From Isoetes taiwanensis (Eukaryota; Streptophyta; Lycopodiopsida; Isoetales; Isoetaceae), in NCBI GenBank assembly GCA_021234155.1, contig JAJEKV010000023.1, positions 3,132,243 to 3,196,242 on the forward strand: DNA of 64,000 nt, in the 5' to 3' direction. Under the pieces are notes generated by a model. That model made no database searches. It worked only from the letters and a program-made list of their open reading frames with translations, and was not told the DNA's origin. This document shows positions 16,549 through 53,930 of the stretch, piece after piece; position 1 is the first letter of the stretch; each line of letters starts with the position of its first letter. The translations under genes were made by a program, and so were the position numbers.

Positions 16549-18518
16549 AGTAATAAAACCCGTGGACTTAGCTTGTGTCCGTAGATAATTTGTATAGAGC
16601 ATAGTGGTATGCGCCCATGGGTGTGTTGGGGGCTTTATTTAAATCTAAATAAAAACTTTAGCTAAGGTAATTTAAAACCTTAATAAATTGAATGGAAAAA
16701 TGTGAGCACACTAAATCGGGGAAGGGCAGATCGTGGGCTGCCCGATAGCCGCGAGTGATCCCCGCTTTTAGAGATGCATGTGGCATGCCGGTTTACCATC
16801 CGGCCCGATCCCGGATGGATCCCCGCCAAGTGTTCTTAAGGCAAGGGTATATAAGAAATAGAAGAGTTGGTGGGATGGGCAAAAAGGAGGAGGAAGAGAA
16901 TCGTTGGGCCGGATCAAATTGGAAGTAGAGCAAGGAAAACAAGAGTCCAAAGCTAAATTCAGATGGGGATTTGATCTATTTCATGATTTTGCAACCCGAT
17001 TGGGGTTGGATTATGTAGAGATGAGTTTCAAGCATGCCGCCACCCCACCGTAGCCAAACTCCGTTCCTAAATAAAATCTGTCATGCCATTTGCTCAGGTG
17101 CTCCCAAACCGCAAACCCTCCTTGAATTCGACCATCCGATCTTTATGAACCTTAGCTTGCTTTCGGTCGGTTGTGTAAAAATAATCCTCTCTCCTCTCCA
17201 CCGCCATGGTCAAGATTGTAACCGCTCTTCCTCCTCGGGGTCATACTCTAGAGATAGTACTTTGCACCTGGATGTATTTTGGAGATGAACCAAGCAGCCT
17301 TGCCAAAGGGTCACTGCTGATTTCCACCATTTGGTCTGATTTTTCTGATCTCTATTGAAGGGGGGATACCGTGGTCCGTATCCCCGCACCTTTTAAAACC
17401 TTATTTTAAAGTTAAAACTTGAACCTTAAGTTGTTAAAAAGTTAAACCTTAAAACCCTTAGGTGTTCTTGTCAATTGTAGTTACCTTCTACCAACCGCTA
17501 GGCAAACCTACCTTATGAGACCAAGATTCCATTGAATGTTGTTGCCGTCCCGTAGTAGGGAAAAGTATCTGCCTGGCTAGTGTATAATGTGGGATGTTTA
17601 TGCGTGCATTAAAGATTGCTCTATAAGTATGAATAGGATATGGGGCACCTTACGGAATTGCATTATGTATCGAGGGCGATATTATGTTTATGGTGCACTT
17701 GAATCAAAGAATGTTGTGCATTTGTGATGCAACGGCCCACCGGAGGAGGGGGGGTGGTCGTAACTCCGCATCCGTGCCAGATGGCCTGACGGATGAGTTG
17801 AACCCTGTATGTACAGATAGAGAGAGTGGTCTCCTTGGGGTCGCCACCCAAGGATTATGCTTGGCATATAGTATGCATGGAAAATGGTAGTTATTGAATG
17901 TACTAACATTGCAGGGGGAGTATCAACGCAATGTAAATAAATCCATTATATTGTTATTATGCATGAATGTGAAGATCCCAATGGCCCTCCCCACTTAGTC
18001 CTTGTGGACTAACCCCGGATGTTTGTTGTGTTGTAAGATGGCACATCCTGAAGCCACGATTGTATTGGACCTAGACTCTTTTGTTACCTGGTGGTTCAAC
18101 GAGACGGAGGTCGTTTCCGGCTTTTAATGTCTAAAGAACGAGTTACGAGATCCCTAATATCATTGTTCGGGGAGTTGTATTATGCGCAAAGGCAACCCCA
18201 GATTGAGGCCCAAGACTTGGGAGACGGATGGAGAGTCTTCCGAGGGTAGCTCAGCAACTCCTCCTCGGTCACCGAGGAGGGGGAAGATCAAAGGGCCAAT
18301 TGAGCATGGGTGGGGGTGCCTTGGGGGTTTTGTATATTATGGGTGTATTGTGAGATGGGGATAATGTGAACTCTCCTTTGTATGTGTGTGTGGCGTTGGG
18401 CCGGATGTAAATGATTTGATTGTAACCAAATATTTATGAATAGAAGTTCGTGATGATTTGATTGTCTATATCCGAAGTTACTTAGTGCGACGCCTAGGCC
18501 AATAGGCTAGGTCCCCGG
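16549..18518 (+). repeat. LTR, unit 1
   Basis: First LTR of the family, about 1.97 kb, entering directly from LINE sequence. Its first bases are altered (CAGTAATAAAACCC against TGTAACAAACC elsewhere). The TATA box TATATAAG is at 16,848-16,855. The end is followed by a degenerate primer site (TTAATATATCGAGCC, 18,519-18,533). It has no MITE, so it serves as an empty-site reference for unit 2. Confidence 0.8.
16848..16855 (+). promoter_or_regulatory. LTR TATA box
   Basis: TATATAAG in AAGGCAAGGGTATATAAGAA, about 300 bp into the LTR. The same octamer is kept at 21,651, 26,167, 30,345 and 38,687; unit 5 has TATATAGA (34,509) and unit 7 AGTATAGA (42,850). This is the likely core promoter of the element, placing U3 to its left. 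Confidence 0.6.
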
Positions 18519-18654
18519 TTAATATATCGAGCCCAAAGTTCCGGACAACCTTCGGGTCATGGGAATTAGGGGTTAGAAACTTAAGAAGTCTCTTTGGAAA
18601 GTAGAGTTGTTTTATGGAAAATAACCATTGCCGCCATCTTCCGTGGTTAGCGGG

Positions 18655-19035
18655 ATGTCGGGAAACAATGATAACGATTCGGGAGATGGGGAAGTGGCAA
18701 TCGCTCCCTACGATAGCGGAGCAGCCATGCAAAGAGCCAGCTTGCCACCATGCAACGCCAGCCTTGTCCGCTAAGGATGCCGACCTTGATGAGGTCAACA
18801 AGGTTTTAAAGCAATTGAAGATGGAGACATTTAGTGGTAAAAGATACCACCGTGAGGATCTTGATGCTTGGTTAAAAGGGATCAAGTTTTATTTTCAAGT
18901 TAAGAAAATTTCCGACCTATTAAAGGCAACCATTGCCTATATATGCTATTAACCTTGGACCCGCCAAGATCGGTGGGAAGAGTATAAGAAGGCTAACCAT
19001 CTTTTCACGAGCGGATCACATGGAGTACACTAGAG
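18655..19035 (+). pseudogene. gag: Partial gag, unit 1 (5' part)
   Basis: Begins with ATG in the context MSGNNDN and continues, after small shifts, with DADLDEVNKVLKQLKMETFSG, DAWLKGIKFYFQVKK and ISDLLKATIA. This is the N-terminal half of a plant retrotransposon gag. It stops matching gag right after ATGGAGTAC, where the satellite begins. The gag 3' end resumes at about 21,160, so this unit shows the insertion from both sides. Confidence 0.75.
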
Positions 19036-21160
19036 TTGTCCCTTGATGGACCATAAATGGTTCATTTGTACGTTCGCTTTAAAATTCATATAAAATCAAT
19101 GGCATAAAATTCAGTTAAACCCTTTCTACATGCTAATATATGGCAGTCATCTTTGTACGGGAAAAATAGTTAAAAATGCATATACCCCTAAAATTGAAAG
19201 TTATATCTAGGTGAACCAGGGGGTCAAGTCCAGTTTGCTTCATGTTTACATAATGTAAAACTGTGTCAATAAAAAGATTTTTTTGATTTTTTTCATTATA
19301 ATAGTATTTTTCTATACGAGATAAGGATGAATACACAAAAAACCTTGTTCCAATTTGAAGTCTAGAAAGGAAGATATAGTCATCAAACATAGCGAGGGGT
19401 CAAAAGCAGTTTTTCGGTCTTCTATGGACCAATAATGGTTCCCGAGAAAGGCACATTTCAATTAAAATTCTATAACTTTTGCATGAAAATGATTTTTGCT
19501 TCAAATTTGGAATATAAGTAGTTGACTAATTGCTTCATGCATAAAAAATATTTGTTGGCTGTAATTTGAAGATTCAGCTTTGACTTATAGTAACAATTTT
19601 AAGTGACTTTTAATTGATGTTTATTTTGTTATATTTGAAGGAAATTTATTGAAATAGTATATTATTAAAAAAATCATATATGAATGCTTGTATGGATATG
19701 AAACCAGTGAAAAAACAAGTAAAGAAAAAGAGCAAAAGGCACGATCATGATAAATCAATAAAGGTTTCTGTACCTAAGACCATTACTGGTCCACAGGTTC
19801 ATTTTAAATCAATAACTTCTTTATGTTATTCGATCTCAAGCTGAATTTTAGGATATTAGTATTTCATGAGATCCTCTATCAATAAAAAATATCTATTGCT
19901 AGGTTTGGGCTAAAACTTTTAGTATTACTTCCAAGTTATCATCAAATGTTTTCCATATTTGATCTCTAGATTTGTGCCTTGAAAATGAACTTCAAACACC
20001 ATATTTCAAAGCTTCCCAAAGTTAAGATAGCAATGCAAGCTGAACCAAGGAAAAATATGAAAAGGTATGACTAAAGAAGATCAAGATAGACTGCTATGCC
20101 GATGCCAATTATTGGTCCACATAACCCTCTCATTTAAAAGTCAAGAACATCATCATCTTAATCAATTCTTTAGAATATAGTTTATATCACATTATATATG
20201 ATAACATTAGTTGATTAGGGAGGATTGTCTATCTAAAAGGTGATATTGAAGCACAAAAATTAAGTAGCTAAGGGCTACTTTGAATGTATGAGAAAGTCCA
20301 CTTACACCTTTCAAAGATTATCTTATAGACGATGAGAAATCATAATATCATTGTAGGGGACAAAATGAATAGAGCCAATGCAAATAAATAGAGAAATTTT
20401 TCTCAATCCAGTTGGTTTAATTCTGGACCTATAAATAGTCCATGCTTATTTATATTCAAATCTTGTATATAATATATTATTCTAACATGAAATTTGCGAT
20501 ATATATTGTCAACAAACGTTCAAATTTACAAAAATTATAACTTGTCATAAAAGTTGATCTACATGTACTATGGTCCTACTTAGACTACAACACTTTGGAG
20601 CAGCCACACATTGTTTAACTTTATAATAGTGGAAAGTAAGTAGGTTTCTACATTTTTTTTCTAATAAGACCACATCGAGGACCTCAATATCCCTTTTTAT
20701 CATATATTGAGCCATTTAAAAGGCTTATGGGAGAAATGTAGTGCAATAAGTTAATATTTTAGATGAACTAGAAAAACAGGTACGAAAAGTCTTTTGATCT
20801 ATTTATTTATAGTCATGGCTAAACTTCGTGATATTGTCCTCTATTCATCAATAACCATCATTACCTACATTATTGTTGAGTTTTAGACCTATAAGGGTCT
20901 AATCAATGCACTTTGGAACCTTTCTTTGTGTTCATCCTGTTATATTAGATCTTGTTTAGATCTAGATAATGCATGGTTATACCCTAGTTACACTATATTT
21001 ATGTTGATAAAGTGAATTCCTATATAGAGTTAATTAGAATGCATCATTTACTATCCTTATGAGACTTATAGATGGGGTTTATCGAAGCACTTTAACCCAT
21101 ATTTTTATTTTGAATTATGTACAATAATTTCCTTAGTTAATAATGATACTAAAACTGGAG
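19036..21160 (+). repeat. Degenerate satellite inside gag, unit 1
   Basis: A/T-rich, non-coding, about 2.1 kb in this unit. A dyad core recurs at 19,048 (GGACCATAAATGGTTC), 19,426 (GGACCAATAATGGTTCC), 19,779 (GACCATTACTGGTCC), 20,104 (GCCAATTATTGGTCC) and 20,425 (GGACCTATAAATAGTCC), spaced 378, 353, 325 and 321 bp, with similar A/T-rich flanks (TCATTTTAAAATC..., TTTAGGATAT...). This is an old, diverged tandem repeat. Units 2 to 6 contain it only up to the equivalent of 20,332. Confidence 0.7.
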
Positions 21161-21340
21161 ATACTCGAGGAAATGCACGTCCTACTCAAGAGAGGCGGTC
21201 AAATGGACCAAACCGGATGAGTTCTGAGGAGTAGGGCGTTGCCGCTTGTAGAAAGATTGTGTTACTATTGTAAAAGAAGTTGGGCATATTTCAGCTCGTT
21301 GTCCTAGGAAGTGGCAAAATAGGGGCAATTGGGGGACCGC
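21160..21340 (+). pseudogene. gag: gag 3' end with zinc knuckle, unit 1
   Basis: The sequence after the satellite matches unit 7 around 53,750-53,900 (CTCGAGGAAATGC..., CCTACTCAAGAG, GTCAAATGGA). At 21,260-21,320 it encodes, after removal of one extra base, a CCHC zinc knuckle CYYCKKVGHISARCPRKWQN (C-X2-C-X4-H-X4-C). Only about 25-40 bp separate it from the next LTR, with a purine-rich AGGGGCAATTGGGGGA in between that may be a displaced polypurine tract. There is therefore no room for pol. Confidence 0.75.
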
Positions 21341-21361
21341 AAGCTAGTAGATAATTGTGTA

Positions 21362-23691: not shown

Positions 23692-23693
23692 GT

Positions 23694-24201: not shown

Positions 24202-25505
24202 ACACTAGAGTTGTCCCTTGATGGACCATAAATGGTTCATTTATACGAGTTCGCTTTAAAATTCATATAAAATCAATGGCATAAAATTCAGTTAAACCCT
24301 TTCTACATGTTAATATATGGCAGTCATATTGTATGGGAAAAATAGTTAAAAATGCATATACCCCTAAAATTGAAAGTTATGTCTAGGTGAACCAAGGGGG
24401 TCAAGTCCGGTTTGCTTCATGTTTACATAATGTAAAAGCGTGTCAATAAAAAGATTTTTTGATTTTTTTCATTATAATAGTATTTTTCTATACGAGATAA
24501 GGATGAATACACAAAAACCTTGTTCCAATTTGAAGTCTAGAAAGGAAGATATAGTCGGGTCAAACATGACAGGGTCAAAAAGGTTTTGTCTTCTATGGAC
24601 CAATAATGGTTCCCTAAGGTCTGTTTTCAATTAAAATTCTATAACTTTTGCATGAAAATGATTTTTTGCTTCAAATTTGGAATATAAGTAGTTGACTAAT
24701 TGCTTCATGCATAAAAAATATTTGTTGGCCCTGTAATTTGAAGATTCAAGCTTTGACTTATAGTAACAATTTTAAGTGACTTTTAATTGATGTTTATTTT
24801 GTTATATTTGAAGGAAATTTATTGAAATAGTATATTATTAAAAAAATCATATATGAATGCTTGTATGGATATGAAACCAGTGAAAAAACAAGTAAAGAAA
24901 AAGAGCAAAAGGCACGATCATGATAAATCAATAAAGGTTTCTGTACCTAAGACCATTACTGGTCCACAGGTTCATTTTAAATCAATAACTTCTTTATGTT
25001 ATTCGATCTCAAGCTGAATTTTAGGATATTAGTATTTCATGAGATCCTCTATCAATAAAAAATATCTATTGCTAGGTTTGGGCTAAAACTTTTAGTATTA
25101 CTTCCAAGTTATCATCAAATGTTTTCCATATTTGATCTCTAGATTTGTGCCTTGAAAATGAACTTCAAACACCATATTTCAAAGCTTCCCAAAGTTAAGA
25201 TAGCAATGCAAGCTGAACCAAGGAAAAATATGAAAAGGTATGACTAAAGAAGATCAAGATAGACTGCTATGCCGATGCCAATTATTGGTCCACATAACCC
25301 TCTCATTTAAAAGTCAAGAACATCATCATCTTAATCAATTCTTTAGAATATAGTTTATATCACATTATATATGATAACATTAGTTGATTAGGGAGGATTG
25401 TCTATCTAAAAGGTGATATTGAAGCACAAAAATTAAGTAGCTAAGGGCTACTTTGAATGTATGAGAAAGTCCACTTACACCTTTCAAAGATTATCTTATA
25501 GACGA
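24202..25505 (+). repeat. Satellite, unit 2
   Basis: Copy of the unit 1 satellite up to the AGACGA junction at 25,500-25,505. It is nearly base-for-base the same as 19,040-20,332, including all dyad cores except the last. Confidence 0.85.
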
Positions 25506-25873
25506 CTTGCCTGAAGGGGCAGCGCGTCATGAATAGCCAGCACCCGGTAACAAGACCGCACAAAATAAGAAGACACAACATCCGGATGAACCTTCCAAAC
25601 CTGCACCACCACATCATCCTGCGGGACTATAGGTATATGTAGCGGAATACTCCCCACCACTTGTTCCCAGATAGCCCGGTCACTGACCCTCAGGCGAAAG
25701 TGAGCTCGAAAGAACTCCCACGAAGCTAGCTGACCACCCAAATATCAATCCTCCAAGGTGAGCACAGCAGCTCGCCTCCAACGGACCTGCGTCTGAGCAT
25801 GCACCGTGGCAGCCAAGGGCAAGTGCGCAGGGGGTAGAGGAAACCACAAGAAAGGAGAAGAGTGGTGATAAAC
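25500..25873 (-). mobile_element. LINE fragment, unit 2
   Basis: Copy of LINE 16,165-16,548, in the same minus-strand orientation, fused to the satellite through AGACGA. It encodes VVGSIPLHIPIVPQDDVVV on the minus strand. It ends at GTGGTGATAAAC, right before the next LTR. Confidence 0.85.
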
Positions 25874-27878: not shown

Positions 27879-27880
27879 GT

Positions 27881-27892
27881 TGGTATCAGAGC
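27881..27892 (+). other. tRNA-iMet primer binding site, unit 3
   Basis: Intact TGGTATCAGAGC after GTTTTCGGT. Together with unit 2 this is the reference form; the other units show CAG changed to CG or worse at the same place. Confidence 0.9.
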
Positions 27893-28014
27893 CCAAAGTT
27901 CTGACAACCTTCGGGTCATGGGAATTAGGGGTTAGAAACTTAAGAAGTCTACTGGAAAGTAGAGTTGTTTTATGGAAAATAACCATTGCTGTCATCTTCC
28001 AGGTGGTTAGCAGG

Positions 28015-28383
28015 ATGTCGGGAAACAATGATAACTTGATTCGGGGAGATGGGGAAGTGGCACTGCTCCTACGATAACGGAGCAGCCATGCAGCAGCAGC
28101 TTGCCACCATGCAACAGCAGCTTGCCGCCAAGGATGCTGACCTTGATGAGGTCAACAAGGTTTTAAAGCAATTGAAGATGGAGACATTTAGTGGTAAAGA
28201 TACCACCGGCGAGGATGCTGATGCTTGGTTAAAAGGGATCAAGTTTTATTTTCAAGTTAAGAAAATTTCCGACCTATTAAAGGCAACCATTGCCGATATG
28301 CTATTAACTGGACCCGCCAAGATCTGGTGGGAAGAGTATAAGAAGGCTAACCATCTTTTCCTGAGCCAGATCACATGGAGTAC
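28015..28383 (+). pseudogene. gag: Partial gag, unit 3 (best preserved)
   Basis: The clearest gag copy. An open frame from about 28,049 to 28,411 reads a Q-rich coiled stretch (MQQQLATMQQQLAAK), then DADLDEVNKVLKQLKMETFS, GEDADAWLKGIKFYFQ, ISDLLKATIADMLLTGPAKI and WWEEYKKANHLFLSQITWST. This is the capsid-type N-terminal domain of a Ty3/copia-like plant gag, with the conserved aromatic W(F)..Y..F pattern. The last codons before the stop (LELSLDGP) already come from the satellite. Without the 3' half and zinc knuckle it would lack nucleocapsid function. Confidence 0.85.
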
Positions 28384-29683: not shown

Positions 29684-30051
29684 CTTGCCTGAAGGGGCAG
29701 CGCGTCATGAATAGCCAGCACCCGGTAACAAGACCGCACAAAATAAGAAGACACAACATGGGATGAACCTTCCAAACCACGCACCACCACATCATCCTGC
29801 GGGACTATAGGTATATGTAGCGGAATACTCCCCACCACTTGTTCCCGGATAGCAGGTCCGGCCGACCCTCGCGGAAAGTGAGCTCGAAAGAACTCCCACG
29901 AAGCTAGCTGACCACCCAAATATCAATCCTCCAAGGTGAGCACAGCAGCTCGCCTCCAACGGACCTGCGTCTGAGCATGCACCGTGGCAGCCAAGGGCAA
30001 GTGCGCAGGGGGTAGAGGAAACCACAAGAAAGGAGAAGAGTGGTGATAAAC
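29678..30051 (-). mobile_element. LINE fragment, unit 3
   Basis: Same LINE piece and same junction as in unit 2, ending GATAAAC before the unit 4 LTR. Confidence 0.85.
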
Positions 30052-40845: not shown

Positions 40846-42169
40846 TAGAGTTGTCCCTTGATGGACCACACTAAATGGTTCATTTATGCGGTTAAGCTTT
40901 AAAATTCACTTCCGAAAATCAATGGCATAAAATTAGGTTAAACCCTTTCTACATGTTAATATAAGCTGATCATATTATGCGAGGAAAAATAGTTAAAATG
41001 CATATACCCCTAAAATTGAAAGTTATGTCTAGGTGAACCAAAGGGGGAGTCAAGTCCGGTTGCTTCATGTTTACATAATGTAAAAGCTGTGTCCCGATAA
41101 AAAAGATTTTTGATTTTTTTCATTATAATAGTATTTTTCTATCTGAGATAAGGATGAATACACGAAACATTCCAATTTGAAGTCTAGAAGGAAGATATAG
41201 TCGATCCAAACATGGCCGAGGGGTCAAAATAGTTTTTACGTCTTCTATGGACTAATAATGGTTTCGAGGAAAGGCTGTTTCAATTAAAATTCTATAACTT
41301 TTGCATGAAAATGATTTTTTTGCTTCAAATTTGGAGTATAAGTAGTTGACTAATTGCTTCATGCATAAAATATTTGTTGGCATAATTTGAGATTAAACTT
41401 TTGACTTATAGTAACAATTTTAAGTGACTTTTTTAATTGATGTGTTTATTTTGTTATATTTGAAGGAAATTTATTGAAATAGTATATTATTAAAAAATCA
41501 TATATGAATGCTTGTATGGATATATGAAACCCGGTGAAAAAACAAGTAAAGAAAAAGAGCAAAGAGCGATCATGATAAATCAATAAAGGTTTACGTACCT
41601 AAGATATTCTTGCAGTCCCTGAGGTTCATTTTAAATCTAATAACTTCTTTATGTTATTGATCTCAGCTGAATTTTAGGATATTAGTATTTCCTTGAGATC
41701 CTCTATCAATAAAAATATCTATTGCTAGGTTTGGGCTAAAACTTGAGTATTACTTCCAAGTTATCATCGAATGTTTTCCATGTTGTTGATCTCTAGATTT
41801 GTGCCTTGAAAATGAACTTCAAACACCATATTTCAAAGCTTCCCAAATTTAAGATAGCAATGCAAAAGGTGAACCAAGAGAAAAATATGAAAGGTATGAC
41901 TAAAGAAGATCAAGATAATTTGCTATACTAGATGCCAATTATTGGTCCACATAACCCTCTCATTTTAAAAGTCGAGAACATCATCATCTTAATCAATTCT
42001 TTAGAATATAGTTTATATCACATTATATATGATAACATTAGTTGATTAAGGAGGTTGTCTATCTAAAAGGGTGATGTTAGGAAGCACAAAATTAAGAGTA
42101 GCTAAAGGGCTACTTTGGATGTATGAGAGGAATCCACTTACACCTTTCAAAGATTATCTTATAGACTGA
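40846..42169 (+). repeat. Satellite, unit 6
   Basis: Same satellite; the junction reads AGACTGA at 42,163-42,169. Confidence 0.75.
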
Positions 42170-42553
42170 CTTGCACGGAAGGCGTGGCGTCATGAATAGC
42201 CGACTACCCATTAACAAGGCCTTCAAAATAAGAAGACACAGCTTATCCGGGATGAGACCTTCCAGGCACGCACCACCCACATCATCTATGGCGGGACTAT
42301 AGGTATATGTAGCGGAATACTCCCCACCACTTGTTCCCGAATGCTTAGGTCAAGCAGAGCCCTCGAGGCGAGAAAGTGAGCTCGAAAAGAACTCCTGAAG
42401 CTAGCTGACCACCCAAATATCAATCCTCCAAGGTGAGCCACGGCCTTGGCTCGCCTCAGGACCTAGCGTCACGAGGCATGCAGAGTGGCGACCCGAGGGC
42501 AAGTCTTGGCGGGGGTAGAAACCACAAAGAAAGGAGAGAAGAGTGGTGATATT
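42163..42553 (-). mobile_element. LINE fragment, unit 6
   Basis: Last LINE piece of the array, followed by TGTAACAAACCC of the seventh LTR. Confidence 0.75.
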
Positions 42554-43628
42554 TGTAACAAACCCTAGGGACTTGAAGCATTAAGGTATTAATTTGTATA
42601 GAGCATAGTGGTATCGTCCATGGGTGTGTTAAGGGGAAGTGAACTAAAATCTAAATAAAACTTTTAGCTAAGGTAATTTAAAACCTTAATACATTGGATG
42701 GAAAAAGTGTAGGCCACACTAAATCGGGAAGGCCGGATCATTGGGTACCCGGATAGCAGCGAGGATCGAAGCAGAGATGCATGTGGCATGCCCGGTTTAC
42801 CATCACGGCACGATCACAGGATGGATCATAAGTGTTCTTAAGGTAAAGGAGTATAGAAATAGAAGAGTTGGCCGGATGGAAGGCCCAGGAGGAGGAAGAG
42901 AATCGGTTGGTGATCAAATTAGGTAAACCGAAAACAAGAGTCCAAAGCTAAATTCAATTGGGGATTTGATCTATTTCATGATTTTAGAGCTGATTGGGAT
43001 TGGATTATGTAGAGATGAGTTTACGAGAAGCATGCCGCCACTGCACCTTAAGCCCGACTCAGGTTCTAAATAAAATCTGTCATGCCATTTGCTCATGCTC
43101 AAATCAGAGCCAAACCACAGCGAGATTCGACCATCGATCTTATGAACCTTAGCTTGCTTCGATTGGTTATTAATAAAAATAATCCCTCATGCGCCTCTCC
43201 AACTACTTGAAGTAGTCAAGATTGTAAATCCGTCACTTCTCCCTCTGGGTCATACTCTAGAGATAGTACTTTGCACTGAATGTATTTTGGAGATGAATTT
43301 ACTGAAGTCTGCCGAGATCAATCGGCCGGGCCAAAAGAGTTGTTGGTAAGCCCGCGATTTGGTTGATCACCTACGATTTCTATTATTGAAGGGGGATAGA
43401 GTCCCGGTATCCCGGACCTTTAAAATCTTATTTTACCAGCAGCTAGGCAAACCTACCTTATGAGACCAAGATTCCATTGAATGTTGTTGAATCGAAGTAG
43501 TAAGGGGAGAAAGTATATCTGCGCAGCTGAGTGTATAATGTGGGATGTTTATCTGCATTAAAGATTGCTCTATAAGTATGAATAGAATTATGGAGCACCT
43601 TCACGAATTGCATTATGTATCACGAGGC

Positions 43629-44696
43629 GATCCCATCGATCCAGGACATCCGGATCGACATTTGTTCTAGAATGGGGGCGGCGTACGTAATGCTTGCATT
43701 CATGCATCGCGGCCTTATGCCGCGCACTACGGTTGGGAGTTAAGCTATTTTAAGTTAAATCAGCGTCTCGCTCCGGTAGCTTCCTCTTCTCTCCCGTGAT
43801 TACCTTATTCTCGCGTGAATTGTTTCCAGGCAGGGGAGAGCTGGCCTTCACCTTGGTTTAGTAATTGGCGTTTCTTTTCATCTTTGTGGCATGTCCTTTC
43901 GGTATGGCTCTTCTTTTCCTTCATCACAGCTGACCTTCGTCCCTCGATTCCGGTTTGTTAAAGGAGTTCGGTATTCGGGTGAGTTTGTTGGTTTCATCGG
44001 CGAGCCCCATTCCTAGAATCCATCGATCCAGGAGACATCGGATCGACATTCTAAATGGAGGCGGTATCATGCATGCATGCGGTATGCCCTTTACGGTTGG
44101 GAGTTAAGCTATTTTAAGTTGCATCAGCGTCTCATGGCGCTTCCTCTTCTCTCGTGATACCTTATTCTCTTTGAACCCACCCTCCCCCTTCTTTGTTTAT
44201 TGTATTTATTAAGCAGCGTGACCCGACCCCTCTGACTTCCGGGGAGGTTTTTGTTTTGTCAGCGTGGCGGCGTCGATACTCTACTGCAGGGAGGTTTTGT
44301 TTTGTCGTTTTGTTGTGTTGGTGATGTCGCGGTGCTGGAGTTGGCGAAGGAATCTGTTCGACTTCTCCATCGTGGGTTTTGGGGGCGATTTCACAGCCGC
44401 TACGTTTGTGAAGCCCCTTCTTAGAGAGGAAAACTATCACTAGGGTTTTCCTCGAAACCCGGAAGCGAAGGTTTTAATCCGGGAGGATAAACTTCGGCGG
44501 GTACAGAGCTACACATCTATTAACATTGTATTTTTGGGGTCCAAATGATTATAATTGGATTTTTCCCTTTATTTTTAGGTGGGTAGTTACATGTATTTAA
44601 GGCTGCTTATCCCCTCGGTAATAGAAAATGGCGAGATGAATGAAAACCTATCCGGCGGGCGGTTTGTTGGTTTTCATCACGAGCCCCATTCTAGAA
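43629..44696. mobile_element. Inserted segment made of two tandem copies
   Basis: Unit A, 43,629-44,017, and unit B, 44,018-44,696, both begin CCATCGATCCAGGA and share GGTTGGGAGTTAAGCTATTT, ATCAGCGTCTC, GCTTCCTCTTCTCTC and the ending GAGCCCCATTC(C)TAGAAT. Unit B has about 300 bp more, including a GTTTTGT-rich stretch and TTTAGGTGGGTAG. The flanking LTR is interrupted between GAGGCGAT and ATTATATTTATGG. A target duplication is not clear. It could be a solo LTR or a tandem LTR pair of a small element. Confidence 0.6.
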
Positions 44697-45045
44697 TATT
44701 ATATTTATGGTGCACTTGAATCAAAGAATATTGTGCATTTGCATCTGGCCGGCCCACGCGGAGGGTGCAGGATTGGCGATGTAACTTCTAAGCATCACAT
44801 TGCCGAGATGTCGTGGATGAGTTGAACTGTATGTCTGAGGATGGAAGAGTGGTCTCCTTGGGGTTGCCACCCAAGTTAAGCAGCATATAGTATGCATGGA
44901 AAATGGTAGTTGAATGTACTAACATTACTGATTATCAGCGTAGCAATTAAAATCTAGCGTATTATTGTTATTATGCATGAATGTGAAGATCCCAATGGCC
45001 CTCCCCACTTAATCCTTGTGGGATTAACCCGGATGTTGTTGTGTT

Positions 45046-45709
45046 GTAAGATGCATGGAATAAATTGCACTACTCCTATATATTTTAGTGTAGCCAAAAT
45101 AGAGTTCCCAGCTAAACTACCTTGAGTGGAGCTAGAGGTTTTTCTAACGCTTGGCTAAACTAAGTGGCTTTCTCCATCAGGTTTCTTGCTTTTGGCTAAA
45201 CTTTCACAAAATGGAAAGACAAATATTAGCCATCCGCGATATAGTAATTAAAAATCAAGCATTTTGGCGAAGACATTGAATTTATTGCCCAAATACATAA
45301 ATCAAGACACAAGGCCGAACATGTTTAAAAACACTAAAAGAAAGGGACTACCTTTGTTTTCTCTTCCTTTAATGTTTCAACTTTATGCTTGAAACCAAAG
45401 AAGAAAGTGGAAAAAAGAAAAATATAAACCACGTTTGAAATTTTTTGAAGTTAGTACATACATTAGTGTTGAATTTTTAGATAAATCGATCCATTTTTAG
45501 GCCCGCTCTATCATCGATGTCACGATGGATATATGCGGGTAAAGGTTTGGATATTCAACCTAAAACTCATTTGGTGACAAAAATTAAGGAACAAAATTTT
45601 TCTTTTTGGGGCATTTTCCATTTACTTTAGCCATTTTTCTTGTAAGCTTTCTGAGAATAGCCGTTTTGGAAATTAACCTTAGCCGTTATTTTTATTCCAT
45701 GGTAAGATG
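45046..45709 (+). mobile_element. hAT-like non-autonomous DNA transposon
   Basis: The element spans 45,054-45,701 (648 bp). It starts CATGGAATAAA and ends TTTATTCCATG, perfect 11-bp terminal inverted repeats. It is flanked by 8-bp direct repeats GTAAGATG (45,046-45,053 and 45,702-45,709). Other LTR copies have the unoccupied site GTTGTAAGATGGCACATCC, proving the insertion. Subterminal GGCTAAA/TAGCCA motifs recur on both sides, as is common for hAT elements, which make 8-bp target duplications. No transposase is encoded, so it would need one in trans. Confidence 0.85.
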
Positions 45710-45965
45710 GCACGCGTCTTGGAAATAGCCCGCGATTGTGTTGGACACAGACTCTTTTGTTGCACGGTGGTTCCAGCGGGGCGGAAGGCTTCAATGTCTA
45801 AGGAGCGAGGTTTGCGAGATCAATATCGAGGAGTTGTATTATGTAAAACCCAGTTAAGGGTAAGACGGGAGACGGATGGAGGTGCTTAGAAATTGGCTAC
45901 ACTGGCGACTCCTCCTTGGTCATAGGGGAGGAAGATCAAAGAGACCCAATTGAGCATGGGTGGTG

Positions 45966-46676
45966 ATATGGAGCAAGCAGGGAGTGGTCCACGGCGAATG
46001 GGTTATTGGAGTTATGGCAAATGCTATGTAAATGTTATTCTAAAAAAGGTCACCCCTAATAATATAAAGAGGCATAGGATAACGCATAGCATGTGGGTGT
46101 GAAGAGCCATTGATATTTATGGAAGGGGTAGGGCACTATCATTTGGGATGGTTATTGGTTGAGAAAAAGATCATAGATAATGTCCCATATATGATAAGTC
46201 ATACAAATCTAATTAAAAGGCAAAGGGAGATATTTTTGAGAAAAAGGCAAAATTTGCACCCCTTTAAAAGGCTAAAGTCATGAGAGATCTATAAAAGTGG
46301 GCAGAAACTTAGGTTCAACATATCCCACAACGAGGAGCTCGATTGAAGCGATCTTTAAGCTCATTGGGCAGAAGCTCGGAGTCTAGTTTCGAATTAGGGC
46401 AGCACATTCTATAGTTCGTCGCATAGAGAGTAATGGCGAAAATATGACAAGGTCTGAGATCAACGCCTGGCTGACACTACAGGATACGCGAATTGTTTTA
46501 TGATGTGTGTGGCTACTTGGAGTAGCTGAATTAGTCAAAAGGCCAAGCCAAATGCGGGAGGCTTTGCTTATTTGTCATAGAGCGCGTTTTACCAGCTTAG
46601 AATGAATCGGTTGGGTGGTTAATGATCTTTTGCCATATCAATTAGTATCAATTGTGCATGAATAAAGACGTTTCTT
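45966..46676 (+). repeat. Left terminal repeat of nested element
   Basis: Starts TGATATGGAGCAAGC and ends near GCATGAATAAAGACGTTTCTTT. Shared landmarks with the right repeat include GGTTATTGG, AAAGAGGCATAG, GAGAGATCTATAAA, TGTTTTATGATGTGTG and GGTTGGGTGGTTAATGAT. CTATAAAAGTGG at 46,290 may be its TATA box. Confidence 0.7.
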
Positions 46677-47671
46677 TAATTAGACAATTTCGTATTTCAT
46701 TATGGTTCTACTAGAAAAAGTGCCGGCGTTGATGGGCTTTTGTCAAAGTTTAAAAACTAAATAATTAATATAAAAAGGTTTATGGCGTTGGGTATTATGT
46801 TCTTGAACGTGGTTTTGCTTGGTTTTAATCACAATAATGTTATTTCATAAGATGTCCATATGTCCTTGTTCAAGTATTCGAGGCCACTAAATTTATAGTA
46901 CATAAAAATTACCTACATGTCCGTGTTTAGGAAAGGGTATGTCATTTCAACAAACGCTATAACACCTTAACTAAGATGCATGCCTACATAAGGTATAAAA
47001 TATTCAAGGGCTTGGTAGGAAGCTGTCAAAGTATTCACTTGCAAGGCAGCACTTCGTCCAAAGTTATTTGCAGTAATCCATACCTAGTGGTTTGGCTATG
47101 GTGTATGGAAGAGAAATTAACTATGTACTTTGCTTTGTGTGCATTCGGACCACCAACATGGAAAAATTTCACTCATTCATTTTGAATTGTGATGTGAAAG
47201 CCAGGGACCATGGTCCCATGTAGAGGTAACACTGAATGGGTTTAGCTATATTAATTGTTGAAACCCATAACCCGGAATTGGCTTTTAAACTTTATTTTTA
47301 GAACACACGCTTCCATCTGTCACGGTCTTCTTTTATCAAAGAAGCTTCAACATAGTTGAAGACAAAGTACGGAGATAATAACTATTGCAGGATAATAAAA
47401 GGGCATGCGGTACTTAAATGGAAATGCTAATCCTTGAGTTGATTCTATTTTCCACCATGCTGTATAAACGGCTTTTGCGCTCATCAAAAGGCTTGTGAAA
47501 ACCTATTTCTGACAAAATCTTTACATCAATCAGCGTTTAGAGTTAATTATAGAAGAACATGATTTTATTAGGCACAACTAACTACGTGAGAAAAGAACAC
47601 TGGCTGAGTAAAGTACTTGAATGTTCACATCGTTTCTTTGAAGTTTAGTTCTTGGAGAAGATAGAGTGATC

Positions 47672-47825
47672 TCAATTTTCATCCACCGCAACATTTGTTG
47701 TCAAAATGGGATCCATTATAATGGTTTGCATTTTAGCCATGATTGTGAAATTCACGGTTGGGTCGGAGAGCCTTGGTTGAACTTTGAACTCAGTACGAGT
47801 TCGTAATGTCACGAATTTGCTCGCA
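47672..47825 (-). CDS. Candidate terminal exon C of the split gene
   Basis: After an acceptor ...GAGCTATTAG the minus strand stays open for 50 codons to a TGA at 47,674-47,672. It encodes SKFVTLRTRTEFKVQPRLSD, then PTVNFTIMAKMQTIIMDPIL and TTNVAVDEN. Exon phase (one base then codons) does not follow directly from exon B, so another exon or an error lies between. A further possible exon is at about 48,560-48,655 (DYALAKPSAYTRSSQVS), with weak splice sites. Confidence 0.4.
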
Positions 47826-48023
47826 CTAATAGCTCACGGAGTGAAATAAAATTAAAATTTGAGAAGTGCAGGCTATGGATCAAATAAGAGAAAGCCAAAT
47901 CATCCCTATTAATTGCACATCTCGGTATTACAAAATGATTTTACGGACTTTCCATGGCAATTAGGGGACATGTCGAGGGATTTGGACCGCATTTGAATAC
48001 TCACGAGATACGAATCTGCTTAC

Positions 48024-48110
48024 CTGAGAGCCATAGTGAGTTTTAGGCATTGGAACAACTGCGGCAAAGCTTGCCAGTTCCCTCTTCACGCATTTAAAAG
48101 TAAATAGAAA
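48024..48110 (-). CDS. Candidate exon B of an unidentified split gene
   Basis: The best-supported exon in the window. The minus strand has a pyrimidine-rich acceptor CTCAATCTCTTTCTTCACAG, an 87-bp open segment, then CTCTCAG and the consensus donor GTAAGC. The phase is 0 at both ends, 29 codons, including KRELASFAAVVPMPKTHYGS. It is downstream of exon A on the same strand with compatible phase. Protein family unknown to me. Confidence 0.5.
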
Positions 48111-49728
48111 CTGTGAAGAAAGAGATTGAGTCATAGCTAAATCACGTTGAAGAATTAAAGGTTCACTTTGTTGGTGACAACACCCTCGTACTCTGTTTTA
48201 CCACTGCATGTTAGGCCATTTACCCATATTCAGTGGACTTTTCTTTGTACTCCATAAAAAGACCAAAATGAAAAACGGCCGGGGCACATAGACAAATACA
48301 TAAAGTGACATAAGCATTTAAGACTTCAAATACAGACATGCGAAAGATGAAACAATGAGACCGAGGTTGAAAAGGACTTACCTCTGCTTATGCTTTTTAA
48401 CAAACCTGAACAATCCTAAGATAGTACTTCCTCTCTCATAATATTACTTGCCAGTAATGTTGTTTCAGTTACTTAAAATGAGTGCGTTATAGGAAACAAT
48501 CATAGAGATCATGGTAGATATCATATATAATTGCAAATTAAATGACTTTGAATGAAGTGATTTATGATGCCACGACACATTATGGAGACCTGGCTGCTCC
48601 TTGTGTATGCAGAAGGCTTCGCTAGGGCATAATCGGAAACATCGCGACTTACGCCGTAAATACCAAAGTATGATATTAGATAACTTGAAGTTAGAACTCA
48701 ATTCAAGGTCCTTCTCCTAGCCCTCGATTACACCAATTGAAATACCTAACCCCGCCATCGTAGCCTGCGGTTGAAATTTTGTTTTGCATTGAAACGAGCG
48801 ATCCGCTGAGATCCCGGGCCTCGCTCATCCAGTTCTATCAAATGCATGAAATTGTATCTTTAATACTTTACATTTTACATACATGCCAATAAGTGCATTC
48901 CTAGATTCAATTCGAGTTTATTCACGATTTTTCTGAGATGACTGTTGGTGCCGCAACATAGACGTTTATGGTAGCACAAACGAGGGCCATTTGGCTTATA
49001 TGCAAATCACAATCTAGGATAGGGCGATGACAAATTGTTGGTTTACTTGAATTGCCATGAAAGTCCATGAACTAAGTAAAATACCAAGTAAAAATACAAT
49101 ACAATAGCAAATTAAAGCATTGTTAAAGAGTGGAAATGTTGGTCGATGGGACTCCCGCTTTTGGCTTCTCCGGAATGCTTGCTTTAATTAGAAAATATCA
49201 AGCCTGGGGTGGGGAAGGTCCATAACAGTGATGTTCCATGCGTAAGCGGCCATCATTCAAAATAGCTTCACTTGATGCGCTATCGAATTCTCATGTGTTT
49301 AAATGCAATATAGATATCACCTTAAACAGGTTAAAAGAAACATATTCATTGCGACCAATTTTTAGCAAGCTTTAGCATTTTTCTAACATGTAAGAAAAGG
49401 AATTAGATATGATCCGGACTTTGATGAGAATATTTGAAGAGCAGTGCCGGATAAAGTAGGCTTTTTGAATCAAGCCTCCATTATGTCAACATTATTATTT
49501 GCTATAATGAGAGTTAATTCGAATATATAATCTTAATGCTTTTTTGTTGATAATACTGTAGTGTTTTGAGACAGAAATACTTAATTTATGAGGGGGCCAA
49601 TTGGTGAAACAATTCCATATACACAGAACATGATGTGGAGACATTAACCAATGAGAACATACAAAAACTAAAACACCACAGTCCTTGGGCTTGATTTTAA
49701 GCAAAATGCAAAGTGAGAGAACTAATAC

Positions 49729-49797
49729 CTTGTGGAACTCGAGACAATGCGCATTTGAACCAGCAACTTTGGTGTATTGCCACTTAAGCGGCGCAAA
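49729..49797 (-). CDS. Candidate exon A of an unidentified split gene
   Basis: 69 bp, 23 codons, open, preceded on the minus strand by ...AACTGCAG and followed by GTATTAG, both acceptable plant splice sites. It encodes FAPLKWQYTKVAGSNAHCLE then FHK. The length is divisible by three and the composition is protein-like. No family is recognised. The call rests on splice sites and frame only. Confidence 0.4.
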
Positions 49798-52045
49798 CTG
49801 CAGTTTCAATCAAACACTTCGATAGCATATCCACAGACCACAGAAATGTAGAATAAGTATGAAAGATTTTCACAGTACAGAGTGTGCACTTAAATTTTTT
49901 GTCAAGGCAGTGAGTCTATGCCACCGCGTTTCATTTTAGCACCAATTTATAAATGCCATTGCACATAGAAGTAGCACCTAGAACCCGAGAAGTAATCCAC
50001 AAGTCAGAGGAAGGAACCCTAACGAAATTACTTTTTTGAGAGTGTGGTGAAGCTCTTGGGTTAAGTCTGAGGAAGCAAGAATCACAGAATCACGATGCCA
50101 GCGATGCTTTCGTGTCGTTGTGCATAATTTTCAGATATAATCATTTCTGCCTCTCAACTGGCGGCCCAAAAAGAGAATGGATTCAAATACGGGACCTGGA
50201 AAGCTTTCCCTTCAATTCAAATCCAAGGGCAAGCGCTGAAAAGTTTCCCGTGAGAAGGAATCGAGGCCCGGTCTGAAGCATGCCAAGGTCATTCTTTATA
50301 CAAGCTAGGAAGTTCGATGTAATGTGCAGCGCTCGAGGGTTTTCAAAGCCACAAGCTAAGAAAAAATCTATCGATTTTTCTTTGCGCAAATCCTCAATCT
50401 CAACCATCCATGCATCAGCGGTTAAAATTGAAATTGATGACAAACACTCAAAATCCCTTTAGTATAAAAAGAAAGATGAATTACATGTTTGTTACCGCTG
50501 CTTAAATATACATGAATTGTATCAAGTGGTATCAGCAGATGGGAATTTGCGATTCTTTTGGGAACCATGGGCAATGGGATGTAGGTGGAATTTGGACTCA
50601 CTAATGCATTATGAGAGGAATTAAAAGAGATCGAGAAGCGATGGAGCTAGAATTTCGGTAGTAAAGATTATTGTTCTTGTATATTACTCTGAGAACCCTT
50701 TAATGGTCTTAGTTTGCAAGAGGATGGCGGAATGAGAGGGAGGAATTATCATTTTGGGGTTCCACAATATATTTGGATTATCTTAATGGAGTAAAAGCCG
50801 CACTTATGCATGAAGGGAAATCTTATGATTTCAATATTAAATACGATTAATGGGGCCCGAGGTGGATTTGGCGACTATTCTTTGAAAAGAAAAAGCTAGA
50901 CATGTGTGAGAGAAAAAAGAAAAGCTTCGGTGCTTTTAAATTGGAGGGAATGCTCACAAGTATATGGACCAACTTGTTGTGAGCGATTCAGTTATTGGGA
51001 GAAACTTTTATGATCCTTTGGGGATTATGGAATAATAAGAGGGTATTTCTTTGAGGTTATCATGGAAAAGCTTATCATGGGAGATAAGTAGTTTCTCATT
51101 GGAGCGAGTTGTCATGGAGACAAATAGCTTGTCAAGGGAGATAAATAAACCATTCTTTACGCAAGGAAACATTCGAATAAAAACATATGCAAACTATCCA
51201 CCATAATCTCTTGCCATCTCTAGAAGTTCATCTTAGTCATTTTAGCATGTAAATTCAACCTTTAAACTTTGAGTATGGAGAGCCTTAAAAGCATCACCTT
51301 GAAGTTAAGTCGGATCATTAGTGATACGAGGAAACTAATTGGCCATTAGGGGTCATTTATATAAATATTTGACTTAGGAAGTCATCTATATTAACACTTG
51401 ACCTTATTTCTGAGGTTTATTTAGTGTTAAGCATTGGGGAGGACTTACTTTACATAAAATTTGTCGAGGGGGATCTGGTCCATAAAATTTGGATCACGGA
51501 ATCTCAAATTGTTTCCCATGGAATGACTTATGGGTAAAAGTTCTAAGTTGAATTTCTTTATTTGGAATAAGAATAGGTACTTTGTTATTGTATACCATGG
51601 TAGATTAGTGACCTCACGGTGATTACAGCGTGGCAGAAGCCCAGACATGGTATACTAGATAGGAATGCCTCTTGGTAGGTAGTGATTGTCTGCCCGGCAC
51701 AATCGGCAGACGAAGTAAGATGTATACTTTTGAAGATAGTAATTGTAATTGCAACACAATTGAAATGACAAAAGAAGTTGCATCATCTTAAGGAGATGTC
51801 TAACATGTCGTGGTGGCGATACAATCAAGTAGTCTGCGTGAATTATGAAGATAATGTACCGCAGTACAAAGGGATATATCATTACTATGGAAGTCTGGCG
51901 GATATAAAGTAACTTCGCCGGAGTTTGCAAGGATTATAAAACTTTCAAATTTGGTGGTGACCATGGAAGATCCTTCTTGAAGGGATGGATTGGGGGTGGT
52001 ATCTTGGGCCACGATGTGGGGCCGATCTATCTTGAAGGGATGGAT

Positions 52046-52757
52046 TGATATAGAGCAAGCCGTGGGGTAGAACCCGCAGATGGGTTATTGGAATTATGGC
52101 AAATGCACTATGTAAATATTCTAAAGGTCACCTAATAATAAAGAGGCATAGAGGATAACTTATAGCATGTGGGTGTGAAGAACCATTGATATTTATGGAA
52201 GGGAGGTCGAGGCACTATCATTAGGATAGTTATTGGTTGAGAAAAGATCATAGATAGTATCCCGCATGATAAGTCATACAATGATCTAATTAAAGGCAAG
52301 GAGATATTTTTGAGAAAAAAAGGCAAGCTGCACTAAAAAGGCTAAAAGTCCTTGAGAGATCTATAAATAGAACCGAAACTTGGAGTTCAACATATCTCTC
52401 ACAACCAAAGCTCAGATTAGGCGACCTTTGGCTCTTGGGAACCGACTCGAGCCTAGTTTTAGAATAATGTAGCACATTCTATAATTGTCCGTATGAGAGA
52501 GTAATAGCCCAGCATTGACGAGTCCGCAGGATCAACGCCATAAAGCGACACCGCAGTCTATGATTGTTTTATGATGTGTGGCTGCTTGGAGTAGCCTTCG
52601 TGTCGGGGAAAGGCCAATAAGCCAAGCGCCCGAGAACTTTGTATTTGTCATAGAGCACTTTCGTGATTTGCCATAACCAGTGGATCAGGTTGGGTGGTTA
52701 ATGATATTTGCCATATCGATTATTATCAATTGTGCATGAATAAAGTTTCTTTTATAT
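52046..52757 (+). repeat. Right terminal repeat of nested element
   Basis: Pairs with 45,966-46,676 along its whole length. It ends near AATAAAGTTTCTTTT and is followed by LTR 7 sequence (TATGTGTGGC...). The two repeats differ by many small changes, so the insertion is old or the sequence is noisy. Confidence 0.7.
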
Positions 52758-53026
52758 GTGTGGCCTTGGGCGGATGTAAAATGATTTGATTGTAACCAAA
52801 TATTTATGAATAGAAGTTAAGTGATGATTTGATTGTCTATATCAAGTTACTTACTTAGTCACGGCGGCCCTAGGCCAAGGGCTAGAGTCCGTTTGATTAG
52901 TATCGAGCCCCAGCTCGACAACGGGCATTAAGAGGGTGGGGTTAGAAACTTAAAGAAGTCTTTTGGAAAGTAGAGTTGTTTATGGAAAATAACCATTCGC
53001 GAGTCATCTTCGGGTGGTTAGCGAGG

Positions 53027-53930
53027 ATGTAGGAAACAATGATAATTCGAGGGTAAAATTACGTACTTTGCTTTCCCTCACGATAACGAACAAGTGCGTA
53101 TGCGGCAGCGGCTTACCCACCATACACCTTGGCGGCTTGCGCCAAGGATCTTTGACCTTGATGCAAAGAGATCAACAAGGTTTTAAAGCGATTGAAGATG
53201 GAGACATTTAGTGGTAAAGATACCCACTTGGCCCGAGGGATCTTTGATGCTTGGTTAAGGATCGAGTTTTATTTTCAAGTTAAGAAACTTACGACCTATT
53301 AAGAGACAACCATTGCCGATATGCTGTCTTGGACCCATGAGATGCGGTGGGAAGAGTTATAAGAAGCTAACCATCTTTTCACGAGCGGATCACATGGAGT
53401 ACCTTTAAGGTAGCATTTAAACTCCATTATCTACCTGGCTGGATTTGAAGGCTAGGCGGATGAACAAGTTCCGAATTTGGTTCAAGAAGATCACGGTGGG
53501 CGAAATGCATTTAGGGCATTGCAGCGGTATGGACCCACCATGGCCGGTGGCTTGCGATTAGCGATAAGTTTATTAGGTAGACTCGGCCGAGATTGACTTT
53601 GATGATTGGAGGGAATTAACCTATCGGTTAGAAGAAGCTATGAGAGTCTCAAGAGTTCAAAGAGCAAGTCAGTCCGGATCACCAAAGTCGAGGAAACCAC
53701 CCAAAGGAATACCCTCATAGCGAGAGAGAGGGTGATCTTTTTGCGGCCACGGATATGCTCGAGGAAATGCGATCCTACTCAAGAGTCAAATGGATATTTG
53801 GATGATTCGAGGAGGCCGAGGAGCGTTCATGGCCAGAATTATTGTTACTATTGTAAAGTGGGCATATTTATTTCGTTGGCTGGAAGTGGCAAAATAAGGG
53901 CAATCACGAGGATTGCATGAGAAGCTAGTG
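53027..53930 (+). pseudogene. gag: gag not interrupted by the satellite, unit 7
   Basis: After a primer-site remnant (TAGTATCGAGCCC, 52,899) the gag begins at ATG 53,027 and passes ATGGAGTACC without the satellite. It continues with TTTAAGGTAGCATTTAAACT, an R/K-rich stretch (ARRMNKFR in one frame) and ends in a damaged zinc knuckle at about 53,838-53,890 (NYCYYCKVG...). Many frameshifts. This copy defines the gag middle (about 53,405-53,750) that is absent from unit 1. Confidence 0.7.

What the first reader, a model, noticed from the sequence alone, without database searches (positions are those of the whole stretch)
16549..53930. A 4.17-kb composite tandem array made of pieces of three repeat classes
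Five identical fusions of an LTR-element-borne satellite to an antisense LINE fragment, each followed by a new LTR, give regular periods of 4,178, 4,177, 4,157 and 4,151 bp. The repeated unit therefore combines a gag-only LTR element, a satellite and a LINE piece. This is how a new macrosatellite can arise from transposons. Seen directly from repeated landmarks; the link to satellite birth is inference.
Basis: partly seen in the sequence, partly recalled or inferred. Interest (0 to 1): 0.75.

Follow-up and report, generated by a model that had tools for sequence, protein, structure and literature searches.

The report
Local tandem duplication of nested transposons
In what is probably a quillwort genome, a 4.2-kb block made of pieces of three different transposons is repeated head to tail at one place; the repeat looks real, but it is a small local duplication in a poorly polished part of the assembly, and nothing shows a new satellite spread through the genome.

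Summary
The array is in the sequence: five head-to-tail junctions, 4,149-4,178 bp apart, each followed by an LTR. The parts need renaming. The "satellite" is the first 1.3 kb of a dispersed, non-autonomous DNA transposon (2.6 kb, TIR CACTAGAGTTGTCCC, TTAA flanks) nested in gag. The LINE piece and the gag are confirmed through relatives.

The junction was seen only in this window (5 of 40 scored rows). A collinear second locus, C1095, carries one unit and no array. Much of the apparent 5-20% divergence of units is sequencing error. From about 31.7 kb to at least 63.2 kb (56.9-59.5 kb untested) the sequence behaves like uncorrected nanopore read.

Two junctions (25,505 and 29,683) share 684 identical bp around the join. 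Three lie in raw-like sequence, so the copy number is provisional.

Best reading: one illegitimate join between the nested transposon and the LINE, multiplied through LTR homology at one locus, probably recently. Macrosatellite birth is not shown.

The parts
16169..20332 (+). Unit 1: LINE piece (antisense), LTR1, PBS and gag 5' part, transposon. Its transposon goes on to 21,154
   Evidence: aligns to C1095 without a break
16169..16555 (-). LINE piece in unit 1 (about 372 bp in the other units: 25,501-25,873; 29,679-30,051; 33,857-34,218; 38,017-38,381; 42,166-42,553)
   Evidence: dispersed copies with variable 5' start and a common 3' end; A-run after the 3' end in L027; RVT_1 in L028 and zf-RVT in L027
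25874..27880 (+). LTR of unit 3 (2,007 bp). LTR starts in the others: 16,556; 21,362; 30,052; 34,219; 38,382; 42,554
   Evidence: TGTAACAAACC start and TGGTATCAGAGC (PBS-like) at 27,881; C1095 LTR1 is 1,993 bp from the start of the aligned part; dispersed LTR copies
27881..28381 (+). PBS-like site and 5' part of gag in unit 3, cut off at the transposon
   Evidence: uninterrupted relative L005:5836-7071(-) hits Retrotrans_gag 6.7e-12 and Ty3_capsid 8.3e-11
28382..29683 (+).
19027..21154 (+). Longer transposon copy (2.13 kb) in unit 1; its right 0.5 kb is missing
   Evidence: 98.4% to L003 over 2,134 bp; the tail piece 20,333-21,154 has 40 scored rows, self included, at 93-100%; full length 2.59-2.65 kb in relatives
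21155..21361 (+). gag 3' remnant (zinc-knuckle part, read by eye) between transposon and the LTR at 21,362; about 350 bp of gag lost
   Evidence: sequence, compared with the uninterrupted gag at 53,380-53,930
25490..25520 (+). Transposon|LINE junction 1 (clean)
   Evidence: identical to junction 2 over 608+76 bp
29668..29698 (+). Transposon|LINE junction 2 (clean)
33845..33875 (+). Transposon|LINE junction 3 (raw-like sequence)
38002..38032 (+). Transposon|LINE junction 4 (raw-like sequence)
42151..42184 (+). Transposon|LINE junction 5 (raw-like sequence)
42554..45962 (+). LTR of unit 7, broken by insertions that C1095 shares
45964..52745 (+). Nested LTR element inserted in that LTR, shared with C1095
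52748..53930 (+). End of the LTR, PBS and uninterrupted gag of a second element; keeps the empty TTAA target
   Evidence: same in C1095
31660..63200 (.). Stretch that behaves like uncorrected nanopore read (56.9-59.5 kb not tested); covers junctions 3-5

Best explanation
The finding is a local tandem amplification of a block of nested transposons, at one locus on one of two collinear contigs.

Shown: the order in C1095, taken as the ancestral one, is LINE (antisense), then LTR1, 5' gag, a TTAA-type DNA transposon, a gag remnant and LTR2. In the window the right end of a 1.3-kb transposon piece is joined to the middle of the LINE, and the block LTR-gag-transposon|LINE occurs five times between the first gag remnant and the right flank.

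Inferred: one illegitimate join, between window positions about 20,332 and 16,169, made a 4.18-kb unit, either as a tandem duplication or as a circle. The unit was inserted at LTR2 by homologous recombination between LTRs and then multiplied by unequal exchange or as a multimer. The circle route is the more economical one, because the longer transposon copy with its gag remnant stands first and the right flank follows directly on a unit's LTR. The amplification is probably recent, since many 100-bp stretches of units 2 and 3 differ from C1095 by 0-1 base. The array has no shown function.
For: Periodicity and five junctions. C1095 runs through the window's 8,051-21,951 and then 42,554-54,377 without the array. 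The three internal joins were spanned only at this locus or at C1095 among the rows scored: transposon|LINE 5 of 40, all in the window; gag|transposon 7 of 40, six in the window and one at C1095; LINE|LTR 4 of 40, three in the window and one at C1095. Stretches of 100 bp with at most 1 edit against C1095: U2 12 of 32, U3 12 of 41, U1 4 of 41, U4 3 of 41, U5 and U6 0 of 41 each; an even 5% divergence would give about 4% of such stretches (Poisson, by hand). In the LTR of unit 7, positions 633, 634 and 746-748 agree with LTR1 of C1095 and 790 and 879 with LTR2, as an exchange between LTRs would leave it; this is weak, see against.
Against: Three of five junctions lie in raw-like sequence, so the number may be wrong. 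The switch in unit 7 rests on two bases in raw-like sequence; an inserted A after 563 and gaps at 583, 637 and 639 agree with LTR2 already before the supposed switch, and unit 5 also has the LTR2 base at 790. At the left end of the LTR of unit 2 the circle model expects LTR2 letters, but most diagnostic sites look like LTR1. Unit 2 keeps GTACCTTTAA before the transposon, whereas C1095 and units 1, 3 and 5 read GTA there; units 4 and 6 are too noisy for the exact letters but also lack CCTTTAA. So unit 2 does not descend simply from the C1095-like copy. The join shows a possible 5-base overlap (GACGA) with the window's LINE, but only 1-2 bases with C1095's LINE, so microhomology is undecided. 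Polishing with multi-mapping short reads could itself have made units look alike. Searches score 40 candidates only, and one search missed the LINE|LTR joins of units 5-7.
Confidence: 0.66

Rival explanations
1. The array is partly an artefact of gap filling: a real short duplication (one or two junctions) was lengthened when successive raw reads were attached to a gap edge inside the repeat.
For: Error profile from about 31.7 kb on: substitutions 6.5-14%, indels mostly 1-3 bp and none over 9 bp in 42,554-49,900. The published pipeline used two rounds of LR_Gapcloser with one pilon polish in between. That tool pastes read sequence and can be run iteratively.
Against: Two junctions are in clean sequence. 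Raw units share edits at the same level (19-30%) as raw pairs that are not both array units (17% for the two nested LTRs, 19-30% for units against gag2), so there is no sign that one read piece was pasted twice. This does not exclude different reads from the same unit.
Confidence: 0.25
2. The whole array is false, with no such junction in the plant.
For: The junction is absent from C1095, and the region is patchily polished.
Against: The junction is clean and identical twice over 684 bp, which I take to need several reads to agree (inference). A graph loop through LTRs alone would not create a transposon|LINE join.
Confidence: 0.06
3. Birth of a macrosatellite from transposons.
For: Regular head-to-tail unit built of mobile-element pieces.
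Against: One locus, five junction copies seen (40 of 1,720 candidates scored). No long array. The 'satellite' is a transposon.
Confidence: 0.07
4. An old array whose units have truly diverged by 5-20%.
For: Raw identities of 80-96% to U3.
Against: The nested LTR has 90-92% identity to 38 genome places when taken from C1095, but 75-80% in 34 rows when taken from the window. Variants of U4-U6 in the transposon part are mainly private (8-11%); 5 two-state columns unite all three against 53 that unite a pair, and 14 edits are shared by all three out of 132-142 each. Indels are very many and very short.
Confidence: 0.03

Closest known systems
Tandem arrays of LTR elements sharing LTRs, e.g. Cassandra TRIM arrays (PMC7215508, abstract read)
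   Same: Head-to-tail LTR and internal domain, with local recombination between LTRs as the proposed cause; described in several plants including ferns.
   Different: Here the spacer between LTRs is gag plus transposon plus LINE, with a non-LTR breakpoint repeated in each unit, seen at one locus only.
Satellites derived from tandem repeats inside LTR retrotransposons in Lathyrus sativus (PMC7004042, abstract read)
   Same: Sequence of LTR elements turned into longer tandem repeats, found with nanopore reads.
   Different: There, short tandem arrays inside LTR elements expanded. Here the whole composite block is repeated, and no clear short tandem array was found inside it.
Ordinary segmental tandem duplication with breakpoints in repeats (recalled, no call)
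   Same: One join repeated, a single locus, and a second contig without it.
   Different: The order of the longer and shorter transposon copies needs an extra step, such as exchange at LTR2 or reinsertion of a circle.
piggyBac-type TTAA transposons (start of the abstract of PMC7351741 in the listing)
   Same: TTAA on both sides and terminal inverted repeats; the genome holds piggyBac transposase domains.
   Different: The 2.6-kb copy read has no frame over 96 aa, and its TIR was not found in the three best transposase loci. Other superfamilies recalled to use TTAA were not tested.

Membership tests
Satellite / macrosatellite DNA | Head-to-tail repetition of one unit | tested here: met
Satellite / macrosatellite DNA | High copy number or several loci | tested here: not met
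   transposon|LINE junction spanned in 5 of 40 scored rows, all in the window; 1,720 candidates, only 40 scored, so this is a lower bound
Satellite / macrosatellite DNA | The 1.3-kb part is itself a tandem satellite | tested here: not met
   36 of 42 rows begin at unit position 2,876-2,883; TIR and TTAA; no array in the 4.5 kb read around the copy in L003
Ty3-type LTR element without pol | LTRs, PBS, gag domain | tested here: met
   the PBS is recognised from memory
Ty3-type LTR element without pol | Absence of pol in the family | tested here: inconclusive
   412-aa gag frame at L005:5833-7071(-) holds no pol; sequence beyond it and full elements elsewhere were not read for pol
TTAA-type DNA transposon (piggyBac-like) | Terminal inverted repeats | tested here: met
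   15-bp exact inverted repeat in 7 of 9 copies; in the other two (L017, L018) the right end was not found in the fetched stretch
TTAA-type DNA transposon (piggyBac-like) | TTAA on both sides | tested here: met
   left TTAA in 7 of 9, right TTAA in 7 of 7, both in 5 of 7 (L019 left TTAG, L020 left AGGA); empty target TTAA in gag2
TTAA-type DNA transposon (piggyBac-like) | Own transposase | tested here: not met
   longest frame in L003's 2.6-kb copy is 96 aa; PF13843 loci L032-L034 lack this TIR within about 1.5 kb
LINE | Reverse transcriptase upstream, 5' truncation, poly(A) end | tested here: met
   RVT_1 9e-18 in L028, zf-RVT 1.7e-11 in L027; variable 5' starts with a common 3' end; A-run in L027. 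The C1095 piece itself has no Pfam match
Cassandra-like LTR tandem array | Unit is exactly LTR plus internal domain | tested here: not met
   the unit carries a transposon|LINE breakpoint

The most novel reading that the evidence does not exclude
A 4.2-kb circle made of parts of a LINE, an LTR element and a DNA transposon formed by an illegitimate join and re-entered the genome at a matching LTR as a multimer. This would give a freshly born composite tandem array caught with its unamplified counterpart still present on a second contig.
Probability: 0.2. Interest if true: 0.5.

Novelty: new member of a known kind. Interest (0 to 1): 0.3.

Why it matters
If confirmed, the pair of contigs is a before-and-after view of how nested transposons become a tandem array, with a breakpoint that can be tested by PCR. 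It also warns that raw-read gap filling can imitate ancient divergence: units that look 15-20% different may be nearly identical.

Tried and rejected
Methylation-type decay as the cause of unit divergence: rejected. In U4-U6 against L003, C to T plus G to A make 36 of 134 substitutions and A to G alone 43, and short indels abound.

Transition/transversion ratio as a sign of error: not decisive. It is about 1:1 in BLAST alignments of most raw segments but 87:47 in gap-tolerant alignments of the transposon part of U4-U6. The indel pattern carries the argument.

An age tree of units: given up, because shared changes among raw units are at the level of raw pairs that are not both units.

Dating by LTR differences: not done, because sequencing error swamps it.

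The CACTA superfamily for the transposon, suggested by its first letters: rejected. The flanks are TTAA rather than a 3-bp duplication.

The autonomous partner of the transposon: TIR not found in the three best piggyBac-domain loci, about 1.5 kb on each side of the match.

Pfam on frames of the LINE piece of C1095: no match; relatives settled it. Pfam on the open gag frame of unit 3 alone gave nothing above cut-off; the uninterrupted gag at C1095 did.

Allele or duplicate: undecided. C1095 is collinear from 10 kb left of the window to 56,876 with large differences (13.6 kb extra near 7.6 kb, 2 kb near 54.4 kb). For 56,876-74,000 no collinear match was found in C1095:665,000-764,999; two inverted repeat matches of 1,641 and 792 columns at 68-72% were.
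Full report
WHAT IS THERE. Self-comparison of the window shows a 4.18-kb unit repeated head to tail between 16,169 and 43,435. Identity of the other copies to unit 3 (25,501-29,683) is: U1 92.4%, U2 94-96% in two pieces, U4 87.4%, U5 84.6%, U6 83.9%, U7 about 80%. A composite junction occurs five times, ending at 25,505, 29,683, 33,860, 38,017 and 42,166.

ANATOMY OF THE UNIT. Unit positions 1-373 are an antisense LINE piece. Of the rows, most share a 3' end near query position 1,055 and a number have other 5' starts; one relative (L027) has an A-run there. One relative has a reverse transcriptase upstream (RVT_1 9e-18, L028), another carries zf-RVT (1.7e-11, L027). Positions 374-2380 are an LTR starting TGTAACAAACC and followed by TGGTATCAGAGC, which I recognise from memory as a plant initiator-tRNA primer site. 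Next comes the 5' part of a gag. The uninterrupted gag at C1095 is a 412-aa frame hitting Retrotrans_gag and Ty3_capsid.

THE 'SATELLITE' IS A TRANSPOSON. In the search with the whole unit, 36 of 42 rows are places that begin at unit position 2,876-2,883. In the first single copy read (L003) the sequence continues for another 0.82 kb, as it does in unit 1 of the window. A search with that tail gave 40 scored rows, self included, at 93-100%. Nine copies (L003, L014-L021) all begin CACTAGAGTTGTCCC. Seven of nine have TTAA to the left. The right end was found in seven of nine, 2.59-2.65 kb away, with the exact inverted repeat and TTAA in seven of seven. In L017 and L018 no right end was found in the fetched stretch, and L019 and L020 lack TTAA on the left. 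In the window the empty target (GTACCTTTAAGG) survives in the second gag at 53,402 and at C1095, and unit 2 still reads GTACCTTTAA|CACTAG. So this is a TTAA-inserting non-autonomous DNA transposon nested in gag. Its right 0.5 kb and about 350 bp of gag are missing in unit 1.

ONE LOCUS. Only the best 39-40 candidates are scored in each of these searches, so counts are lower bounds. The transposon|LINE join is spanned in 5 of 40 rows, all in the window. The gag|transposon join is spanned in 7 of 40: six in the window, one at C1095; an eighth row, on C41, reaches 23 bases past the edge. The LINE|LTR join is spanned in 4 of 40: three in the window, one at C1095. One search missed the LINE|LTR joins of units 5-7, which are in the window, so noisy copies can escape these searches.

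THE UNAMPLIFIED COUNTERPART. C1095 (reverse strand of 665,000-764,999) aligns with -9,999 to 7,623, then 8,051-21,951, then 42,554-54,377, then 54,375-56,876 of the window. It has LINE, LTR1, gag, transposon, gag remnant, LTR2 and the right flank, with no repetition of the unit. Window and C1095 are therefore taken as the amplified and single states of one arrangement, either as alleles or as a duplicated segment. The published paper names recent segmental duplications as one possibility for similar gene pairs on separate scaffolds.

WHY THE UNITS LOOK SO DIFFERENT. Differences to C1095 from about 31.7 kb on are 6.5-14% substitutions plus many 1-3 bp indels. None is over 9 bp in 7.3 kb, which is unlike evolved noncoding DNA as I know it. 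The LTR of the nested element is 90-92% identical to 38 other places when taken from C1095, but 75-80% in 34 rows when taken from the window. For 59.5-63.2 kb, three other copies of a repeat agree with each other at 92% and with the window at 82-84%. 54.4-56.9 kb is 83% to C1095; 56.9-59.5 kb was not tested. Units 4-6 have 8-11% private changes in the transposon part against 0.5-1.4% in U1-U3. Raw pairs share 17-30% of their edits whether or not both are array units, so I read the sharing as systematic error and not descent. The noise is not confined to the right: the LTR part of unit 1 has 7.1% private changes, 12.3-19.0 kb differs from C1095 by 4.6-4.9% substitutions, and 2.0-7.6 kb by 7.9% (which contig is at fault there was not settled). 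Low- and high-edit 100-bp stretches alternate in units 1-4, as patchy polishing would leave them.

THE ASSEMBLY. G000 has 1,658,258,908 bases in 1,110 contigs. The Isoetes taiwanensis v1 assembly is given as 1658.30 Mb in 204 scaffolds plus 909 contigs (1,113, so three more than here). It was made from nanopore reads (miniasm, racon, pilon), Bionano scaffolding and two rounds of LR_Gapcloser with one pilon polish in between, then purge_haplotigs (PMC8566536, 12 of 18 passages shown). I infer that this is the source. LR_Gapcloser pastes read sequence into gaps and can be iterated (PMC6324547, abstract and section 8). The raw-like stretch fits such a fill; the fill itself was not seen.

WHAT CAN BE TRUSTED. 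Junctions 1 and 2 are identical over 684 bp. Junctions 3-5 and the count of five rest on raw-like sequence. Stretches of 100 bp with at most 1 edit against C1095 number 12 of 32 (U2), 12 of 41 (U3), 4 of 41 (U1), 3 of 41 (U4) and 0 of 41 (U5, U6). An even 5% divergence would give about 4% (by hand). This points to a recent amplification, with the caveats that such stretches are picked by their low count and that polishing with reads from several copies can make copies look alike.

MECHANISM. Shown: one breakpoint repeated, and a second contig without it. Inferred: the join of transposon position about 20,332 to LINE position about 16,169 closed a 4.18-kb unit, and LTR homology put it into LTR2. 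For this speaks the order of parts (longer transposon copy and gag remnant first, right flank directly after a unit's LTR). A change from LTR1-like to LTR2-like letters in unit 7 fits too, but it rests on two bases in raw-like sequence, with three gaps and one inserted base to the contrary. Against it speak unit 2's mostly LTR1-like left end and its unshortened transposon edge. Whether a circle or a plain duplication came first is open.

COMPARISON. LTR-based tandem arrays (Cassandra, PMC7215508, abstract) and satellites grown from tandem repeats inside LTR elements (PMC7004042, abstract) are the closest printed cases among those I looked at (15 of 126 papers listed, two abstracts read). This array is neither, but it is an ordinary kind of event. 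Interest is modest.

Noticed in passing
G000 (genome-wide); L032-L034: The genome holds 83 matches to the piggyBac transposase domain PF13843, the best three in open frames of 784-984 aa, in what is probably a lycophyte. A paper search for piggyBac with Isoetes found none; a fern genome paper lists PiggyBac copies (PMC6890710, one passage).
   Followed up: partly
L003 and L014-L021: A dispersed 2.6-kb TTAA-flanked non-autonomous transposon with TIR CACTAGAGTTGTCCC; a search with its 0.82-kb tail gave 1,189 first-look candidates, of which 40 were scored.
   Followed up: partly
window 31660-63200: Uncorrected nanopore-like sequence inside a 19.7-Mb scaffold. Gene or repeat dating here would be wrong, and the same may hold for other gap-filled parts of the assembly.
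   Followed up: partly
window 24150-24210 (unit 2): Unit 2 alone keeps CCTTTAA before the transposon; C1095 and units 1, 3 and 5 lack these 7 bp. Unexplained if all units come from one copy.
   Followed up: partly
window 21952-22273: An insertion of about 320 bp in the LTR of unit 2 that C1095 lacks; not identified.
   Followed up: no
rows: C1100:7528402-7530372, C915:520867-522797, C1035:15789351-15791326, C1056:811954-813823: Copies of this LTR lie as inverted pairs almost touching each other at four places; real palindromes or fold-back read artefacts.
   Followed up: no
window 58705-59056: A small tandem array with 22-43-bp motifs and a 157-bp period.
   Followed up: no
window 7623-8051: C1095 has about 13.6 kb of extra sequence here.
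   Followed up: no
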